Below, in pieces: positions 22,426-42,716 of a stretch of 64,000 nt of DNA. Below the pieces are notes generated by a model. The model saw only the letters and a list, made by a program, of their open reading frames with translations, had not been told where the DNA came from and searched no databases. Each line of letters opens with the position of its first letter. The stretch's first letter is position 1. The DNA lies in the NCBI GenBank assembly GCA_002742845.1, contig DLUH01000001.1, forward strand, positions 437,291-501,290, in the 5' to 3' direction. This DNA comes from Sulfurovum sp. UBA12169 (GTDB taxonomy: Bacteria; Campylobacterota; Campylobacteria; Campylobacterales; Sulfurovaceae). A program made the translations under genes and the position numbers.

Positions 22426-23772
22426 CTACAATCCTTCGGGTATCTTGTGGACGGCCTTTTTTTTGCCGATGATTTTTGAGAGTTCATCGCCTTCTACGAT
22501 CTCCTGTTCGACCAGCTTCAATGCCAGTGTTTCGATCTTGTCCCAATACGTCTCGACCAGTTTTTCCGTATGGGTTTTGGCCATATCTATCCAGTACAAA
22601 AATCTTTTTTCGATCTGCTGGCTTAAAAAGTAGCTGTCTAGGCCGGCGATGGATTCGATGTTGATAAACCCGAGTTCTTTGTCCATCCCCAAACTGGAAA
22701 TGGCCGCATACACCTGCAGGGATGCCTGGGAAAGATCATTGATCGCGCCGCTGTCCATGTGTTCGTTGCCGGCTTTTTTGATCTTGGCTACGCGCCCTGC
22801 GAGCAACACGCACACATCGTGAAACAGCTCTTCTTTGGTGACGTTTGAGAGCTGGTCTTCGGCATTATAGGAGACAAAGCCGAGCATTTTGCTTCGAGGC
22901 GAGATAGTCACCTGTTCGATCTTGATGTGCGGCAGCAGTATCGAAGAAAGCACGGCATGGGCCGCCTCATGGTAGGCGGTCATCCTGAGCTCTTCTTCGA
23001 AGTTTTTTACCATTGCCTTTTCGACTTTGTGTCCGTACTTGATGATATTGATCTGCTCTATAAGTATCTCTTCGGTGATGAGTTCTTTTTCTTCTTCGAT
23101 GGCATTGAGCGCCGCCATGCGCCCCAGCCTCTCAAGCTCCATGGCGCTCATACCCGCGATATAGCGCACAATACGTTCGGTGTTGATGGCGGGGTCATGG
23201 GGTTTTTGCATGATCCGTTCGATGAAATACCTTCTTGCATCCTTATCAAGGTTGGACACCTCAAGCAAAAAATCAAGCTTTTGGGGAGCCGTAAGAACCG
23301 GATCGACCCCTTCAAGCGTCTCTGCCGTAGCGATGGTAAACACCATCGCATCAATCCCTTCAAGCACTTTGGCGATATCGGGAAACGCGACATTGGTGAT
23401 GGCTCCCTGCATCACCCCTTTGATATCGATATCCTCAAGGATCACGATACAAGGTGCATGCTTTTTGGCATTTTCATAGACTTCTTTGATATAAACAAGG
23501 TCAAACAGCCGTGATCCGGATATCTCATAATAAGACATGCCGGCCTCTTTTGCAAATGCTTTTGCCAGCATGCTTTTCCCTACGCTTGCAGGACCGTACA
23601 GCAGCAGCCCTTTGGGAGGCGGCGTGTCAAAACGTTCTAATGTTTGAGGATTTTTTACTATTCGGATAATTGCCTTGAGGCGTTTTTTGATCTGCTTGTG
23701 TCCCACGACATCATCAAATCCTATCTTGGATTTGTGAAGTTTGGGAGTTTCTTTTTCTTTTTTCGTTGCCAT
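22426..23772 (-). CDS. Soluble FtsH-like AAA/M41 metalloprotease without arginine fingers
   Basis: A 448-residue protein with an AAA module (about 15-250) and an M41 peptidase module (about 255-448) but no transmembrane helices, unlike true FtsH. Walker A GPASVGKS is at 60-67 and Walker B reads VILEDID (110-116). The zinc site is complete: His268-Glu-x2-His272 (HEAAH) and Asp346 in GAINDLSQAS. In the second region of homology, where FtsH has LLRPGRFDR, this protein has LTAPQKLDF (160-168), so the conserved arginine fingers are replaced by Lys and Phe. Protease activity is likely; canonical hexameric ATP hydrolysis is doubtful. It starts 150 bases from the divergent upp gene. Confidence 0.85.
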   Translation of the reverse strand: MATKKEKETPKLHKSKIGFDDVVGHKQIKKRLKAIIRIVKNPQTLERFDTPPPKGLLLYGPASVGKSMLAKAFAKEAGMSYYEISGSRLFDLVYIKEVYENAKKHAPCIVILEDIDIKGVMQGAITNVAFPDIAKVLEGIDAMVFTIATAETLEGVDPVLTAPQKLDFLLEVSNLDKDARRYFIERIMQKPHDPAINTERIVRYIAGMSAMELERLGRMAALNAIEEEKELITEEILIEQINIIKYGHKVEKAMVKNFEEELRMTAYHEAAHAVLSSILLPHIKIEQVTISPRSKMLGFVSYNAEDQLSNVTKEELFHDVCVLLAGRVAKIKKAGNEHMDSGAINDLSQASLQVYAAISSLGMDKELGFINIESIAGLDSYFLSQQIEKRFLYWIDMAKTHTEKLVETYWDKIETLALKLVEQEIVEGDELSKIIGKKKAVHKIPEGL

Positions 23773-30508: not shown

Positions 30509-31543
30509 ATGAAAAAGATTATTTCTCAAAAATATAGCCGTTTTGTGATCTACTTCAAAATTTTTACGGTTTTTATGCTTTTGCCTTTGGCTTATAATCT
30601 TATCCCTGTCACTTACACTGCGACCACTTTTTACCTTCCTGCTTCCGATTTTGAAACCGTTGAGCACACACTCAAAAAAAACGGATTTGATATCACATGG
30701 GTCGATGCGTTTATGCTGAAACTTATCCGTGTTCCCATGAAAGGCTGGTACGAAGTGGACCCCAAAGCACACGGCCGGTTCCTTTTTTATGCCTATATGC
30801 ATCGCCAAAGAGCCAAAACCATGCAGGTCGTGATCTATGCGGGCGAAACCAAAGAAGAACTTGTTAGGCGATTGGCAAATGATATGAAATTGGATGAAAA
30901 GAAACTGATGCGCTATTATAAAAAATATGCCCTATTTGAAGAGGGAGATATCCTCGCCAATCGATATACTGTAGCCAGAAGCGCCAGTGAAAAAACAACG
31001 ATGGAGTATCTTTTTAGACGCTCTGGACAGATGCTTGAAACTTTCATGAAAGAGCATTTGCAAGAAGCCGATGCATCAAAATTTAAACAGACGCATATCA
31101 TAGCTTCGATTATCCAAAAAGAGAGTAATCTTGCAGATGAAATGCCCGCTATCTCTTCGGTAATTCACAACAGACTGAAAAAAAATATGAGACTTCAGAT
31201 GGACAGCACCCTCAACTACGGCCCTTACTCGCACACCATCGTTACTGCCGAACGCATCAGAACAGATGAAAGCCCCTTCAATACCTATAAATACAAAGGT
31301 CTTCCGCCGCATGCTTTAGGCACCATGAGTCTTGAAGCGCTTAGGGCCGCAACCTACCCGCACAAAAGTGATTATCTTTTTTTTATGCTCAACAAAGAAG
31401 GAAAGCACAACTTTACACACAATTATGAAGAGCACAGAAAAAATATTAAGCTCTTTAGAGACTATCTCAAAGAGAAAAAAGCCCAAGAGGAAAACTCCAC
31501 CTTCTCTGCTTTGCAAAACGAACAAAACCTAACGGATAAATAG
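30509..31543 (+). CDS. mltG: Endolytic murein transglycosylase MltG (YceG)
   Basis: A 344-residue membrane-anchored lytic transglycosylase that cuts nascent glycan strands. One transmembrane helix lies at about 14-32, a LysM-like region follows, and the YceG catalytic core has the Glu in IIQKESN and the motifs NRLKKNMRLQMDST and GLPPHALGTMSLEAL. ATG 30509 is chosen over TTG 30503. Its 3' end overlaps the convergent 54-residue ORF by 15 bases. Confidence 0.94.
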   Translation: MKKIISQKYSRFVIYFKIFTVFMLLPLAYNLIPVTYTATTFYLPASDFETVEHTLKKNGFDITWVDAFMLKLIRVPMKGWYEVDPKAHGRFLFYAYMHRQRAKTMQVVIYAGETKEELVRRLANDMKLDEKKLMRYYKKYALFEEGDILANRYTVARSASEKTTMEYLFRRSGQMLETFMKEHLQEADASKFKQTHIIASIIQKESNLADEMPAISSVIHNRLKKNMRLQMDSTLNYGPYSHTIVTAERIRTDESPFNTYKYKGLPPHALGTMSLEALRAATYPHKSDYLFFMLNKEGKHNFTHNYEEHRKNIKLFRDYLKEKKAQEENSTFSALQNEQNLTDK

Positions 31544-31693
31544 CCCCTTCACGCGTTCCCAAAAAGTACGTTTTTTTCTCTGTTCTTTTTGCGTCAGTTT
31601 GTTTTGCTGCGCAGCAGACTCATAGACTTCAAGGGATTTAGAAAGATTGTCTTTGGCGCGCTGAAGATGTTTGGGTTCAAAGTCATTGCGCAT
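31529..31693 (-). CDS. 54-residue small ORF behind the MotB-like gene
   Basis: ATG at 31693 overlaps the last four codons of the MotB-like gene, and the frame ends at 31529, inside the last codons of the convergent mltG. The peptide (starts MRNDFEPKHLQRAKDNL, ends FWERVKGLFIR) is strongly helical, charged and ends in an aromatic-basic tail. Tight overlap and codon use like its neighbours suggest a real fourth member of the VWA-MotA-MotB operon, but I know no homologue. Confidence 0.5.
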   Translation of the reverse strand: MRNDFEPKHLQRAKDNLSKSLEVYESAAQQNKLTQKEQRKKRTFWERVKGLFIR

Positions 31694-32795
31694 CTAGAAC
31701 CTTTTCTATCTCATGCATTGCATCTTCATTTTTCAATCCAAATTTGATCTCAATCCGTCTTGAAGCTTCTTGATTTTCAACCCCGTTTACTTTGATCGCA
31801 TCCAAAAAAGCACGTCCGGACGCAATCAGAAGAGGTTTGATGTTTTGTTCTTTGGCAAAATCAAGCGATAGTAAAAAATTCATGACTGCCAAAGCGCGCT
31901 TTTGTGAAAGATCAAGGTTGTAAAGGTATCCGCCGTCACTGTCAGTATGCCCTTCAATAATGATTCTGTCCAGATGCGGCTTGATCTTTGGATTGGTCAC
32001 CAATGCGCCCACATACTCTTCAAATGCTTTTTTAAGACTGGCTTTAGACTCTTCTTTTAGCTCTGCGCTTCCTTTGTCAAATAAGATATTTGATGCGAGC
32101 CTAAGCGAACCGCTTTGTCTGTCTATGGCTATTTTGTCACCCAGCTCTTCTTTGAGTGCGGCGATGACTTTGAGCTTGATACCCGTAAGTGCTTTTATCT
32201 TTGCTTTTTGTGCTTGCAAGCTAGCTACCAGTTCATCATATCTGGTTTCTTTTTCATCGAGCGCATTAAGCAGTGCCAATAGTTTTTCATCATTGAGTTT
32301 GGCGGTTTTGTTTGCTTCATTCAGCTCACTGGAGAGCACAAGAACCTTACCTTCATACTCTTCGATCTTTTTATTCTGCGTAGTGATGGTGGTGTTGCTC
32401 TCTTTGAGAAGATTTTGCACGATAACTACCTTATTGCTCAACAAATCTTTTTGGGTGTTGGCTTCAAGCAGCATGGCATTAAGCTTTTTTATCTCATCTT
32501 CTTTAAGTTTCAAAATTTGTTCATTCTGAGAAAGTGCATCGGTTTTTTTACCCAAAAGTGCTTTATTTTTGGAAAGCGAAGCGCTCAACTCATCAAGAGT
32601 GCGTTCTTTGTTTTGAAGCGTCTTAGAAATAAGCGCAAGGGCATCTTCTTTTTCATGAAGGTCTGTTTTTAGGATAATGGACTTGGAGACAATCGCTCCG
32701 ATAAGGAGGATAAATACAAAAAGTAATCCTGCCATCAAATCAGCATAAGATATCCAGAAATTGCTTTCTTCGCTTGTACTCTTTCTACTAAACAC
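31683..32795 (-). CDS. MotB-like OmpA-domain membrane protein
   Basis: A 370-residue MotB/ZorB-type protein. The N-terminal helix (about 14-38) has the MotB signature SYADLMAGLLFVF, with Asp19 placed to carry protons. A coiled coil of about 160 residues (45-205) leads to a C-terminal OmpA-like peptidoglycan-binding domain (about 225-360) with IIIEGHTDSDGG and NLDLSQKRALAV. The coiled coil is much longer than in flagellar MotB. The start is GTG, sharing a base with the upstream stop (TAGTG), so the pair is made together. Confidence 0.9.
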   Translation of the reverse strand: MFSRKSTSEESNFWISYADLMAGLLFVFILLIGAIVSKSIILKTDLHEKEDALALISKTLQNKERTLDELSASLSKNKALLGKKTDALSQNEQILKLKEDEIKKLNAMLLEANTQKDLLSNKVVIVQNLLKESNTTITTQNKKIEEYEGKVLVLSSELNEANKTAKLNDEKLLALLNALDEKETRYDELVASLQAQKAKIKALTGIKLKVIAALKEELGDKIAIDRQSGSLRLASNILFDKGSAELKEESKASLKKAFEEYVGALVTNPKIKPHLDRIIIEGHTDSDGGYLYNLDLSQKRALAVMNFLLSLDFAKEQNIKPLLIASGRAFLDAIKVNGVENQEASRRIEIKFGLKNEDAMHEIEKVLDAQ

Positions 32796-33901
32796 TATTT
32801 TATATCCTCTTTACTGGCGGCTGTATTTTTTAGTATCATTTGATTCTGCTCTGAAATAATCTGTGCAAAAGCAGTGAGTTTTTTTACAATCTCCCCTACC
32901 TCTTGATCGATCTTATCAAAAGTGTGATCCACGCTTCCATCAAAACGCTCCATCGCTTTTTGAAGATTTTTGGCATTGGAGTTAAACCCTTCAATGTTCT
33001 GCTTGATGGCAGAAACGGCGTTAATACTCTCTTGACGGTCTTGTACTTTCTCGAGCGTCATACGCAAATCGGTCGTGACATATTGAAGATTTTTAGTCAA
33101 TTCGCCGAAACTGTGTGTTGTCTCATTGATAATAGCTGTAAAGTTTTTTAAATATTGCTCGTTGAGCTCTTTGATAAAGTCAAGATTAAAAGTCTCTTTG
33201 AGTGTTTGGACAATCTGTTGATCCTTGAGTTCGCTTTGCGTATGTTCATGTTTGATGAGTTCGCTTTTTGTCCATACTCTGGAGTTGTAAATTTTTTCAA
33301 GGCTAAGGATATTTTTATCAATTTTGGCATTGCCCCTTTTTTCAAAATAGGTCCATATAAGAGAAAGCATAATCCCATAAATAGATGCATAAAACGCTGT
33401 CCCTATCCCCGAAAGAAGTATAGATATCTCACGGTCAAGCGCTTCAAGATCTTTGACGGTAAAATCCGGCATAGAAAGTGCAATAGCGATAAACGTTCCC
33501 AAAATTCCCAGCATAGGGAAAACAGAGGGCGCCACTCTGGCAAAATTATCATTACGGATATCTTTGTAGTACTCGGCGATAAACTCACGCACATTGAGGG
33601 TTGACTTGGTTTTTTCCATAATGGTCAGCGCATTGGCGCGAAGCGCATTTTGGAGCGTCCCTTCCATCTTTACAAATGATCCTCTCATGTAACAAGCAGC
33701 ATAATTGGCATTATGCTGCGCAAAAAGAGCGAAAACAATAAAGATAAAAGCTACGATCACGAGGGTGTGGAGCTCCACCTTTAAAGGTATGATATCCAAA
33801 TATCCCAACACAAGCCCCAGCAAAAAAACAAAAGGGATGAACAGCAAAGCAAAAGAGCGAGAAACACATGAAGCTTCTTGATTTTTATCAAATTCTAACA
33901 T
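32795..33901 (-). CDS. MotA/TolQ/ExbB-like proton channel protein
   Basis: A 368-residue membrane protein with four helices (about 17-37, 47-66, 128-148, 165-187) and a cytoplasmic C-terminal tail of about 180 residues rich in heptad-like helices. FPMLGILGTFIAIALSM and GIGTAFYASIYGIMLSLIW are the MotA/ExbB signature helices. With the MotB-like partner it should form an ion-driven stator. I chose ATG 33901 (MLEFDKNQ); the frame is open back to 34027 but that part overlaps the VWA gene and lacks a good ribosome site. Confidence 0.85.
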   Translation of the reverse strand: MLEFDKNQEASCVSRSFALLFIPFVFLLGLVLGYLDIIPLKVELHTLVIVAFIFIVFALFAQHNANYAACYMRGSFVKMEGTLQNALRANALTIMEKTKSTLNVREFIAEYYKDIRNDNFARVAPSVFPMLGILGTFIAIALSMPDFTVKDLEALDREISILLSGIGTAFYASIYGIMLSLIWTYFEKRGNAKIDKNILSLEKIYNSRVWTKSELIKHEHTQSELKDQQIVQTLKETFNLDFIKELNEQYLKNFTAIINETTHSFGELTKNLQYVTTDLRMTLEKVQDRQESINAVSAIKQNIEGFNSNAKNLQKAMERFDGSVDHTFDKIDQEVGEIVKKLTAFAQIISEQNQMILKNTAASKEDIK

Positions 33902-33969
33902 AAAAAATCCTAAGGGTACAATTTTAAAAATTATACTCAAAATGAGTATATAAAAGGCTGATGAGAACC

Positions 33970-35229
33970 TTAATCCAACACTATTACTTCCCCAAAGGGG
34001 ACATCCAGGGCTTTTGGCATAACCCAAAACACATCAAAAGGAGCTTCACACTGCGGAAATACACCATAGCCATCAGTAAAATAAAGCAATAATGTCGGAT
34101 AATCAATGTGCGCTTCAACATAGTCAAACACGGCACGAAAATCAGTCCCTCCCCTGCCGCTTAGTTTGTACTCAAGAAGTTCGCCCGGCAAAAAAACCCT
34201 ATGAGACTGCACCTGCGTATCCGCGGTAATCAAATCTATCTCATAGTTGGGATAACTTTCCATGATTGCATTGACTTCTGACAAAAATATGCCCAAAAGA
34301 GACTCATCCACAGAACCCGAAGTATCCACTGCGACAACAATGCGCAATAGATCTGAGCTTAGACTCGGCAGGCAGATGTTCCTATAAAGATATTTCATGT
34401 TGGGAGGCATAAAGGCATAAGTACTTTTAGCATAAGAAGCGATATATCGATACAACACCTCGCGCCAATGAATTTTGTGAGAAAAATACTCAGGAACGAC
34501 AAACTCCAAATCTTTTGGCAAACTGCCTTGCCGATTGAGTTTTTGAAATATCTGCTCAAACTGCTCTTGAAACTCTTGCTGCAAAGATCCCATACCCTCC
34601 TGCGGATTTTCTACTTTTGATCCATCGGGGGGTGTGTCTTGAGACTTTTTTTTGTTTTGAGAAGTATTTTGCTTAGCGGTACTTTTCGAAGCGGCAGTTT
34701 TGTTGTTATTTTTATTTTGATCCCCGGAAGCCTCTCCGCCTTCTCGGAGCGCCCCGTCATTGCCGCTTTTGTCCTGCCCTTTTTGTGCGTGCTCTTTGAG
34801 ACTTTCCTCACCGCTAAGCTCTTCATTCATGATCTCCAAACGCAGCATCTCATAAACCTCTTCGGCATACATTCCCTTAAACCGCTCTTGGTAATTCGCT
34901 CTTGGCGGAAGCTGCAGGCCGTTGCTGACCAGCATAGCATTGACCGTATAGTCCGTTGCCAACTGCCACAGCCAATCATAGCGGCTATTGGTGCGTTTTG
35001 TATGTTCCAGTACTGCATGCATTGCCCCGTTTGTAAGCGCAAACTCTATCTCTTTCACTTCCGCGCTGTCAAAATATGCATCATTGTACTGCAAGCGGAT
35101 ACCGTCAGAAAGAAATGACTCGATATTGTCGCTTTGTTCAAGTTTCAATGCAGAGGCTATCGTTCCAAAATAAGGATGGTCCAGCATCAGTTTGGCTTTG
35201 GCTTTGGCGATTTTCTCTAGATGTGTCAT
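33970..35229 (-). CDS. VWA-domain protein with DUF2201-type N-terminus
   Basis: A 419-residue soluble protein. The N-terminal part (1-130) resembles the putative metallopeptidase half of DUF2201 proteins, but the expected HExxH is degraded: NGAMH at 68-71 region followed by AVLEH (72-76). A low-complexity Lys/Asn/Gly linker (about 140-215) joins it to a C-terminal VWA domain with an intact MIDAS (DTSGS, 302-306; RGGTDF later). Such proteins usually pair with MoxR AAA ATPases; a MoxR gene lies 5 kb downstream at 40196-41200. Transcription starts at an extended -10 box six bases before the ATG. Confidence 0.82.
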   Translation of the reverse strand: MTHLEKIAKAKAKLMLDHPYFGTIASALKLEQSDNIESFLSDGIRLQYNDAYFDSAEVKEIEFALTNGAMHAVLEHTKRTNSRYDWLWQLATDYTVNAMLVSNGLQLPPRANYQERFKGMYAEEVYEMLRLEIMNEELSGEESLKEHAQKGQDKSGNDGALREGGEASGDQNKNNNKTAASKSTAKQNTSQNKKKSQDTPPDGSKVENPQEGMGSLQQEFQEQFEQIFQKLNRQGSLPKDLEFVVPEYFSHKIHWREVLYRYIASYAKSTYAFMPPNMKYLYRNICLPSLSSDLLRIVVAVDTSGSVDESLLGIFLSEVNAIMESYPNYEIDLITADTQVQSHRVFLPGELLEYKLSGRGGTDFRAVFDYVEAHIDYPTLLLYFTDGYGVFPQCEAPFDVFWVMPKALDVPFGEVIVLD

Positions 35230-40195: not shown

Positions 40196-41200
40196 CTAGC
40201 TCAAAAGATACGCAAACTTCCTCACCCATTCACCCCAGACACCCGATCCCTCAACATCTATTCTGTTTTGTTGCATATCTTTAACCAGCATGATAGCAAA
40301 CTCACCCGGAAGAGTAAGAGAAAATTTTAGAACATTATCTATAGCAGCTTCACTCTGATTTTCCAAAAGTGCATTAACCAAGCCAATGGCAAGCGCCATC
40401 ACTATTTTGGCATCTTCCACCTCTGCTGCTTCAAGCGATCCGTCAAGTATGGAAGATAAATCAGGCAATTGATTCATTACTTTTTTGAAACTCAAATACC
40501 CCACAGTGGCTTCACGTCCCACAGCCCCGCTAATACTATCTAATATTAGGTCTGCTTCTATGGCTGACTTGATAATGGTATCAACATATTCCCAAGATCT
40601 TGGTGTTGCAAAACTCTTTTCATTGGAGGTCGGATCAAAAGTAAAGAGCATAGATTTGTCGTAAGCCAAATAGGCAATAATAGAGCTTTCGATACCTGCC
40701 TTGAATGCCCATGTTTTCCAGTCATTAAAGTCCGCCTCCATTTCAAAGTGTACAAAACGATTTGCAAGCGGGGGAGGCATCTTGTAAACCACCCCTCTGT
40801 CATTCTCACGATTACCCGCTGCAACAACACTCCAGCCCTCCGGCAGTTCATACTCTCCTACTTTTCTATCAAGTATAAGCTGATAGGCAGAAGCCTGTAC
40901 GGCCGGAGGAGCGGTGTTGATCTCATCAAGGAAAAGTATTCCCTTGCTTTCAGGCCGACTCGGCAAAAAGCTTGGTTTTGCCCATACCCCTTCCTTTGTA
41001 TCTGCATTGAAAAACGGGATACCTTTAAGATCGGTTGGATCAAGCAGAGAAAGTCGCAGGTCAAAAAATTCCAAAGCTTTTTCATTGGCAATTTGTTTGA
41101 CAACAGAAGATTTCCCTATCCCGGGTGCCCCCCAAATAAATACGGGCAATTTTTTTTCAATAAGACGACTGACTACCTTTGTAATGTCTGATGCTTTCAT
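40196..41200 (-). CDS. MoxR-family AAA+ ATPase
   Basis: A 334-residue AAA+ protein of the MoxR group, which act as assembly or metal-insertion chaperones together with VWA proteins. Walker A GAPGIGKS (24-31), Walker B GILFLDEIN (87-95), the pre-sensor VVAAGNREND and the arginine-bearing PLANRFVHFEME are present. Residues after about 230 form a helical C-terminal domain. The gene lies 130 bases after the repeat protein gene in the same direction, behind a leader that can fold two ways. The likely VWA partner is the DUF2201 protein at 33970-35229. Confidence 0.9.
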   Translation of the reverse strand: MKASDITKVVSRLIEKKLPVFIWGAPGIGKSSVVKQIANEKALEFFDLRLSLLDPTDLKGIPFFNADTKEGVWAKPSFLPSRPESKGILFLDEINTAPPAVQASAYQLILDRKVGEYELPEGWSVVAAGNRENDRGVVYKMPPPLANRFVHFEMEADFNDWKTWAFKAGIESSIIAYLAYDKSMLFTFDPTSNEKSFATPRSWEYVDTIIKSAIEADLILDSISGAVGREATVGYLSFKKVMNQLPDLSSILDGSLEAAEVEDAKIVMALAIGLVNALLENQSEAAIDNVLKFSLTLPGEFAIMLVKDMQQNRIDVEGSGVWGEWVRKFAYLLS

Positions 41201-41209
41201 ATTTTATAT

Positions 41210-41237
41210 CTCCTTTAAAAGGAGCAAAGCCCCTTTT
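41210..41237 (-). promoter_or_regulatory. Two mutually exclusive hairpins over the moxR ribosome site
   Basis: Read on the minus strand, AAAAGGGGC-TTT-GCTCCTTTT (41237-41217) makes a 9-bp stem with one G-U pair. The same CTCCTT arm can instead pair with AAGGAG, the Shine-Dalgarno site of moxR (41224-41210, 6-bp stem, TTA loop), nine bases before the ATG at 41200. The two folds exclude each other, the layout of a translational on/off switch. Confidence 0.55.
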
Positions 41238-41330
41238 AAATTCCTCTCACTCTTGTGCTTGCACTCTCTTTGAGAAAGCTTCGCCCTTGGCTCAGATTTT
41301 TCATTTATTTCTCTTCTTGTTTTCTCCTCA

Positions 41331-42716
41331 TCACAATCCCAAAGACTGCGTGATGCTTGCCACAAATGTTTCATTGGCGGTAAGCGCATTACGCAAACGC
41401 GTGTCTATCTTGAAAATATTAAGAAATTCAAGCGGCGTCGAAGGATTGCTTGCCAGTGCCTCATTGATCTCAAATTGATCTCTCTCATACAGGCTGCATA
41501 GTATCTTTTGGGGTGTAGACGCATTTGAAGCTAAGCTTTTTAGAATTTCAAAATTTTCATCCTGTTTTTCATAAAGTTCTTCAAGTATGTATGTCGGTGT
41601 TGAAATATTTTTTGCAAGAAAAGGATAAACCTGGGGGATTTTTCTTTCAAATATAGTCTTCAAAACAATTGGCAAAACCGTATCGTTTCTGCACAAACGC
41701 TCTAAAAGCGCACAATTTTCATCCTCCTGCAGTTTTTGAAGCACCTCATGTGCGATATGTTTATTATCCCCCAAAGAAGCAAACAAAATTTCATCTGTGA
41801 CTTTTTCTTTAATCCAAAGATATCTCTGCATAGTAATCGGCTGATACCAAAGCAACAACTTCACGGTATCGGATGTTTTGTCAAGCAAAGAAAAAAACAT
41901 AGCATCATCGATCTTTGAATTGGAGGCTAAAGCTTCATTGATTGTGTGACTGTCTCTTTTGGCAAATGTTTGCAACAATGCCAAATCAAGGCTTTCATTG
42001 CAAGCTAGATACATGTCTACGCCTTCATCGCGCAAACTCAGCAACCGAGAAACAACGGTTTGATCTATGTGTCTGTTTGCGGCTATGGTTTCATGCAGGG
42101 TAATTCTCTGTTTGCCTTTTTGCAAAAAACTGATATTTTGAAAACCGATCAAAGCATAAAGCAATCTTGGATCTATAGTCTCTCTGGATAAACGATTTAG
42201 CGTCAAAGGCGAATAGAGCAAATCCTCCTCGTTGGGCTTTATCTTAATATATCGACGCAAGGTAGCCATAATCACTTCGCGATCTTGCCTATTGTCTTCA
42301 TCCTCATGGTGCCAACAATACATATCGAGCAATTTCACAAAAAGCGTGTCGCTCAAATGTCCATTCTTAATCAACCGAAAAATACGTTCTTGATCATTGC
42401 TGAGTTTTATGCCCATCAACAATTCGTCATCGTCAATAGTCTCAGAAATCAGTTTTTCAAACTCTGCAAGTTTGTAAAGCGGGATATTTTGCTCATACGC
42501 CAAAGAAGAAATATCCTCCTCCAAAGGGCTAAGGATATGATGCTCTATCACACCGACTACCCCCGTTTCAAGATTTTCGGTTCGGGCAATACGGAATCGT
42601 TTTAGATAACGCTCGGTCTCCGCTTTAGTAAAGACCCCTTCTTTTCCTAAAAAAAGTATCTTCGCGCCCTTTGATTCTTTCAACAATGCATCCAATTCCA
42701 TTTTAGCATACACCAT
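41331..42716 (-). CDS. LRV/HEAT-like repeat protein upstream of moxR
   Basis: A 461-residue soluble protein. From about residue 150 it is made of short helical repeats of leucine-rich-variant type, most visible as LASNASTP, LASNPSTP, LAKNISTP and LASNSKID phrases spaced 24-30 residues apart. The N-terminal 120 residues include a possible small domain (GAKILFLGKEGVFT). No catalytic motif is seen; a scaffold or binding role is likely. No strong ribosome site decides between ATG 42716 and ATG 42701. Confidence 0.7.
   Translation of the reverse strand: MVYAKMELDALLKESKGAKILFLGKEGVFTKAETERYLKRFRIARTENLETGVVGVIEHHILSPLEEDISSLAYEQNIPLYKLAEFEKLISETIDDDELLMGIKLSNDQERIFRLIKNGHLSDTLFVKLLDMYCWHHEDEDNRQDREVIMATLRRYIKIKPNEEDLLYSPLTLNRLSRETIDPRLLYALIGFQNISFLQKGKQRITLHETIAANRHIDQTVVSRLLSLRDEGVDMYLACNESLDLALLQTFAKRDSHTINEALASNSKIDDAMFFSLLDKTSDTVKLLLWYQPITMQRYLWIKEKVTDEILFASLGDNKHIAHEVLQKLQEDENCALLERLCRNDTVLPIVLKTIFERKIPQVYPFLAKNISTPTYILEELYEKQDENFEILKSLASNASTPQKILCSLYERDQFEINEALASNPSTPLEFLNIFKIDTRLRNALTANETFVASITQSLGL

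What the first reader, a model, noticed from the sequence alone, without database searches (positions are those of the whole stretch)
31529..35229. VWA protein + MotA-like + MotB-like + 54-residue ORF: a possible uncharacterised energised envelope machine
Four tightly packed minus-strand genes encode a VWA protein with a degraded metallopeptidase half, a MotA-like channel with a long cytoplasmic helical tail, a MotB-like protein with the channel Asp (SYADLMAGLL), a 160-residue coiled coil and an OmpA domain, and a small helical peptide. Known MotAB-like systems (flagellar, Ton/Tol, Zorya) do not use a VWA subunit. The usual VWA partner, a MoxR ATPase, is encoded 5 kb away with a repeat protein. 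A MoxR-VWA chaperone serving an ion-driven stator would be new.
Basis: partly seen in the sequence, partly recalled or inferred. Interest (0 to 1): 0.6.

Follow-up and report, generated by a model that had tools for sequence, protein, structure and literature searches.

The report
Orphan Zorya-type ion motor, small partner
Three of the four genes encode a membrane ion motor of the kind used by the Zorya anti-phage system, but without its DNA-attacking parts and with a previously unnamed 54-residue partner protein; it is a fixed chromosomal gene set in whole bacterial families, and the VWA gene next door belongs to a different system.

Summary
All four ORFs are real, but they are two systems.

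(1) MotA-like, MotB-like and the 54-aa ORF form one unit. The pair matches ZorA/ZorB better than any other solved family. It has one copy per genome and is found in 112/120 genomes of one family and 65/75 of the window's own. The 54-aa ORF is a genuine microprotein: all 72 hits in 80 Sulfurovum-type loci lie at the MotB 3' end, a profile built without close relatives finds it at E=4e-9, and dN/dS is 0.11-0.36. No ZorC or ZorE is linked to it.

(2) The VWA protein (DUF2201) belongs to a REP-MoxR-VWA operon: all 34 VWA genomes carry MoxR, while VWA and MotA co-occur at chance level (15 versus 11.6 expected). The VWA-MotA junction arose inside Sulfurovum and broke about seven times. Each system is found without the other. 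MotA keeps its own TATAAT box after the VWA stop.

The 'VWA-MoxR-serviced stator' is not supported. What remains is an effector-less ZorAB-type motor with a long periplasmic stalk and a new small partner. Its function is unproven.

The parts
32795..33901 (-). MotA/ZorA-like channel subunit, 368 aa: 4 TM helices, invariant G-I-L-G-T-F (TM3) and nearly invariant Thr168 (TM4), ~190-residue cytoplasmic helical tail (last helix 241-367)
31683..32795 (-). MotB/ZorB-like subunit, 370 aa: TM with invariant Asp19, ~170-residue periplasmic coiled-coil stalk, OmpA-type peptidoglycan-binding domain
31529..31693 (-). 54-aa microprotein, start overlapping the MotB stop by 11 nt; N-terminal F-x-P-x-x-L-x-x-A motif and C-terminal amphipathic helix; new family, no significant Pfam/NCBIfam/PADLOC match
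33930..33935 (-). TATAAT box 34 nt upstream of the MotA ATG, after the VWA stop codon; position conserved in loci with and without VWA
33970..35229 (-). NOT part of the motor: DUF2201 VWA protein, member of the dispersed REP-MoxR-VWA unit
40196..41200 (-). NOT part of the motor: MoxR-type AAA+ ATPase, cognate partner of the VWA protein
41331..42716 (-). NOT part of the motor: LRV-like repeat protein (REP), adjacent to MoxR in most relatives

Best explanation
The locus holds a stand-alone, effector-less ZorAB-class ion motor: five MotA-like subunits round two MotB-like subunits, plus a translationally coupled microprotein. Inferred mechanism: ions pass MotB Asp19 through a Thr-lined MotA channel and turn the MotA pentamer around a MotB dimer, which is fixed to peptidoglycan by its OmpA domains through an unusually long coiled-coil stalk. 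The bundled MotA tails then act as a cytoplasmic rod. The microprotein binds the membrane and/or the rod as regulator or adaptor. The most likely role is a housekeeping one at the cell envelope (sensing or loading peptidoglycan), not mobile phage defence. The upstream VWA gene is part of a separate REP-MoxR-VWA chaperone-type unit whose VWA gene moved next to the motor once within Sulfurovum. Shown: family identity, gene unit, conserved residues, microprotein reality, independence of VWA. Inferred: 5:2 assembly, rotation, role of the microprotein, housekeeping role.
For: Best solved-structure matches by sequence and by fold are ZorA and ZorB, and the channel tree separates the family plus Zorya from ExbB/TolQ at 100/99. 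Asp19, the GTF/GTAF ring and the peptidoglycan-binding residues are invariant or nearly so across 23 diverse members. MotA shows one match per genome in all listed positive genomes of the phylum sample (170 positive); MotB is present in 112/120 and 65/75 genomes of two families. It was not found on plasmids, where the homologues that could be typed are Zorya loci with effector genes. No ZorE or ZorC is present in the window genome. Microprotein. VWA independence; separate promoter box.
Against: No functional data exist. AF2 models are monomers with modest confidence (pLDDT 76 and 80). VWA is still upstream on the same strand in 21 of 59 Sulfurovum-type loci with room, so a lineage-specific link is not excluded. 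The microprotein was not found in the Campylobacter-type loci and is missing from several others (e.g. G106), so it is not universally required. PADLOC's ZorB1 profile PDLC00609 scores the MotB at 5e-58, so a defence role with an unlinked effector remains possible.
Confidence: 0.72

Rival explanations
1. It is a Zorya-like anti-phage system whose effector is unlinked, unknown, or is the microprotein itself.
For: Sequence and fold are closest to ZorAB; PADLOC ZorB1 profile hit 4.9e-58.
Against: No ZorE or ZorC EH_signature in the window genome, and none linked to this pair; NCBIfam Zorya cut-offs are missed by far (54.5 vs 500 bits; 44.1 vs 100). Single-copy, near-fixed distribution in families is unlike patchy defence genes. 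No convincing defence gene among ten tested window neighbours (ABC and FtsH ATPases give generic hits).
Confidence: 0.18
2. One reading: a MoxR-VWA chaperone serving an ion-driven stator.
For: VWA directly upstream of MotA in the window and within 5 kb on the same strand in 21 of 59 Sulfurovum-type loci.
Against: Independent occurrence and independent loss of the two units; MoxR lies with REP or VWA, not with the motor; the linkage has one origin and about seven breaks; a MltG neighbour is retained about as often (22 loci); MotA has its own promoter box.
Confidence: 0.06
3. A duplicated or diverged flagellar stator.
For: PF01618 and OmpA domains; Asp in the MotB helix.
Against: The other PF01618 genes in the genome look ExbB/TolQ-type (ExbD/TolR-sized partners); flagellar MotAB ranks far below ZorAB in fold search.
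Confidence: 0.02

Closest known systems
Zorya ZorA/ZorB (types I and II; PDB 8QYD, 8VVN, 8VVI; PMC11890865)
   Same: Predicted 5:2 motor core, helical cytoplasmic tail of the A subunit, Asp in the B helix, OmpA-type peptidoglycan-binding domain; best sequence and fold matches
   Different: No ZorC/D or ZorE next to it; B subunit 313-491 aa with a coiled-coil stalk versus 223-292 aa for the complete Zorya ZorB proteins compared here; third gene is a microprotein; near-fixed rather than patchy and mobile
C. jejuni Cj0598-Cj0599 (gene order nth-peb4-fba-Cj0598-Cj0599 recalled from my own knowledge)
   Same: Locus L052 has this gene order, and its A and B subunits align over full length (about 31% and 40% identity)
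   Different: No microprotein found; a PLP-enzyme gene overlaps the B-subunit stop instead; Cj0598 is listed as function unknown (PMC5841378)
vWA proteins coupled to TolQ-like motors (PMC12204202)
   Same: A VWA gene beside a 5:2 motor gene
   Different: Those vWA proteins are membrane-tethered, with an SHLS motif or a transpore helix; here the VWA is DUF2201 with a MoxR partner and no such helix
MoxR-vWA ternary systems (PMC7159879)
   Same: AAA+ MoxR plus VWA plus a third component: REP-MoxR-VWA here
   Different: Third component is an LRV-like repeat protein and the VWA protein is of the DUF2201 type, a name not found in that paper

Membership tests
Zorya anti-phage system | ZorA/ZorB motor pair | tested here: met
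   (homology; NCBIfam curated cut-offs not reached)
Zorya anti-phage system | Effector genes zorC/zorD, zorE or zorF/zorG | tested here: not met
   No ZorE or EH_signature ZorC in the window genome, none linked to the pair in relatives; ZorF/G not searched
Zorya anti-phage system | Mobile or patchy distribution in defence context | tested here: not met
   Present in 112/120 and 65/75 genomes of two families, MotA once per genome; not on plasmids; no convincing defence genes among neighbours
Zorya anti-phage system | Protects against phage | not testable with these tools
   needs plating assay
ZorAB-class 5:2 ion motor | Conserved Asp in B helix, Ser/Thr ring in A, cytoplasmic helical tail, peptidoglycan-binding domain | tested here: met
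Flagellar MotAB stator | Closest relatives are flagellar stators | tested here: not met
MoxR-VWA (DUF2201) pair | VWA co-occurs with and lies next to MoxR | tested here: met
   34/34 VWA genomes have MoxR; adjacent in most relatives outside the window's genus; in this genome 5 kb apart
vWA motor force transducers (PMC12204202) | TM helix with SHLS motif or Asp-bearing transpore helix in the vWA protein | tested here: not met
   window VWA is DUF2201_N+DUF2201 over its whole length; no hydrophobic N-terminal helix or SHLS in its sequence

The most novel reading that the evidence does not exclude
A ZorAB-type rotary motor with a dedicated microprotein subunit does a conserved non-defence job at the envelope in whole families of Campylobacterota, Campylobacter included, and represents the ancestral or parallel housekeeping use of the motor that Zorya turned into phage defence.
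Probability: 0.45. Interest if true: 0.68.

Novelty: new variant of a known kind. Interest (0 to 1): 0.47.

Why it matters
It shows a Zorya-type motor kept as a near-fixed single-copy chromosomal gene pair without Zorya effectors, which makes it testable whether such motors sense or act on the envelope by themselves, and whether the defence use is derived. It adds a third, conserved small protein to a motor class so far known as two-subunit. It also warns that defence-gene profiles can label such pairs as Zorya. Cj0598/Cj0599 of Campylobacter jejuni appear to belong to this family and have no known function.

Tried and rejected
First-look adjacency suggested that VWA-MotA linkage was limited to three genomes; the wider scan showed it in 21 of 59 loci with room, so I tested its history on a tree and its loss pattern before rejecting a functional unit. 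Zorya with linked effectors was rejected. Flagellar duplication was rejected. The tree of B subunits with Zorya ZorB is unresolved (long branches), so I do not claim sister-group order; in the A-subunit tree one member (L053) was cut at a wrong motif and contributed little. Papers found on Cj0598/Cj0599, ZorAB and MoxR/vWA did not report this family. Ion type (H+ or Na+) was not decided.

Full report
What is there. The four minus-strand ORFs exist as described. MotA-like is best read from the ATG at 33901 (368 aa). MotA and MotB overlap by 1 nt, and the 54-aa ORF starts 11 nt inside the end of the MotB gene. The genome is of the Sulfurovum type: the nearest public locus (98% MotB identity) is from a Sulfurovum MAG (L077).

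The pair is of the Zorya motor class. Pfam gives MotA_ExbB and OmpA only. PADLOC matches are ZorB1 (4.9e-58) and ZorA2 (1.7e-18), while NCBIfam Zorya models are hit far below their cut-offs. Among solved structures the best sequence matches are E. coli ZorA and ZorB and then the Shewanella and Sulfuricurvum ZorAB chains. Fold searches with the AF2 models rank ZorA and ZorB chains first, well ahead of TolQ, ExbB and flagellar MotA. In a tree of channel cores the family plus Zorya is split from the genome's own ExbB/TolQ at 100/99. Members share an invariant Asp19 in F-W-x-x-Y-A-D-L-M-A-G-L-L, an invariant G-I-L-G-T-F and a nearly invariant Thr168, a helical cytoplasmic tail, and an OmpA domain. 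The B subunit is longer (313-491 aa) than the complete ZorB proteins compared here (223-292 aa), because of a coiled-coil stalk of variable length.

It is not an ordinary Zorya locus. ZorE occurs in 9 and EH_signature ZorC in 1 of 150 genomes of the order; neither is in the window genome, and none is linked to this pair. The MotA search gave one match per genome in every listed positive genome of the phylum sample (170 of 347). The pair is present in 112 of 120 genomes of one family and 65 of 75 of the window's family (MotB searches). On plasmids only distant homologues appear, and those that could be typed are Zorya loci with effector genes. From the gene order of locus L052 I infer, from my own knowledge of C. 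jejuni, that Cj0598-Cj0599 belong to the family. A paper lists Cj0598 as function unknown (PMC5841378).

The 54-aa ORF is a real gene. A small ORF with F-x-P-x-x-L-x-x-A at its start and an amphipathic C-terminal helix follows MotB in several genera and families. A profile built without the three sequences of the window's genus finds the window ORF at 4e-9. A profile from all of them, run over about 12,700 six-frame ORFs in 80 loci, gives 72 hits, all at the MotB 3' end. In 18 informative close pairs dN/dS is 0.11-0.36. It has no significant Pfam, NCBIfam or PADLOC match. It was not found in the Campylobacter-type loci, where a PLP-enzyme gene overlaps the MotB stop instead.

VWA and MoxR are another system. 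In relatives the order is REP-MoxR-VWA. All 34 genomes with the VWA have MoxR (p about 7e-28), but VWA and MotA co-occur in 15 against 11.6 expected (p=0.22), and in 6 against 7.2 outside the window's family. MotAB stays where VWA and MoxR are absent (G055, G094, G343; the genomes of L079, L093, L103, L105, some of them possibly incomplete assemblies), and G374 of the window's own genus has VWA-MoxR while no MotA match was found. The VWA-MotA junction is confined to Sulfurovum-type loci; the tree needs 8 changes, read as one gain and about seven losses. VWA is upstream in 21 of 59 loci with room, in several with genes between; the MltG gene on the other flank is kept in 22. MotA has an exact TATAAT about 35 nt upstream in 10 of 13 closely VWA-linked loci (1.3 expected) and in 25 of 49 without VWA (8.3 expected), including the near relative L079 that lacks VWA.

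Mechanism. Shown by homology and conservation: channel, Asp, tail, peptidoglycan-binding domain. Inferred: 5:2 assembly, ion-driven rotation with the MotB dimer anchored to peptidoglycan, a rod of MotA tails in the cytoplasm, and a microprotein acting at the membrane or rod. In Zorya the tail, ion flow and peptidoglycan binding are all needed for activity (PMC11890865). The wide, single-copy distribution argues for a housekeeping envelope role, but a defence role with an unknown effector is not excluded.

Novelty. ZorAB motors, MoxR-VWA pairs and VWA-motor neighbours are all known kinds (PMC11890865, PMC7159879, PMC12204202). New, as far as the papers I could search show, are the effector-less near-fixed ZorAB pair with a long stalk and its microprotein.

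Noticed in passing
window 40196-42716 and loci L061-L075: REP-MoxR-VWA operon (LRV-like repeat protein, MoxR AAA+, DUF2201 VWA) conserved across families; the HExxH motif of the VWA protein is lost family-wide while MIDAS is kept.
   Followed up: partly
G374, G444, G456, G450, G433, G453, G324: A second protein of about 660 aa with an OmpA domain resembling this MotB occurs in several genomes of the window's family; MotA shows only one match per genome, so it may have another partner.
   Followed up: no
L172 (G044:C56): MotA remnant broken by stops and frameshifts: a decaying copy in a genus where other species keep the gene.
   Followed up: no
PADLOC profile PDLC00609 against window 31683-32795: A 'ZorB1' defence profile scores this effector-less MotB at 4.9e-58; automated defence annotation may mislabel such genes.
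   Followed up: partly
PMC5841378 (Cj0598): The C. jejuni gene I take to be the MotA-like orthologue is listed among genes with human-associated amino-acid changes.
   Followed up: no
window 22426-23772: A 448-aa AAA+ / M41 peptidase protein, shorter than usual FtsH, lies in the window.
   Followed up: no
window 31529-31543: The 3' ends of the microprotein gene and the convergent MltG gene overlap by 15 nt.
   Followed up: no
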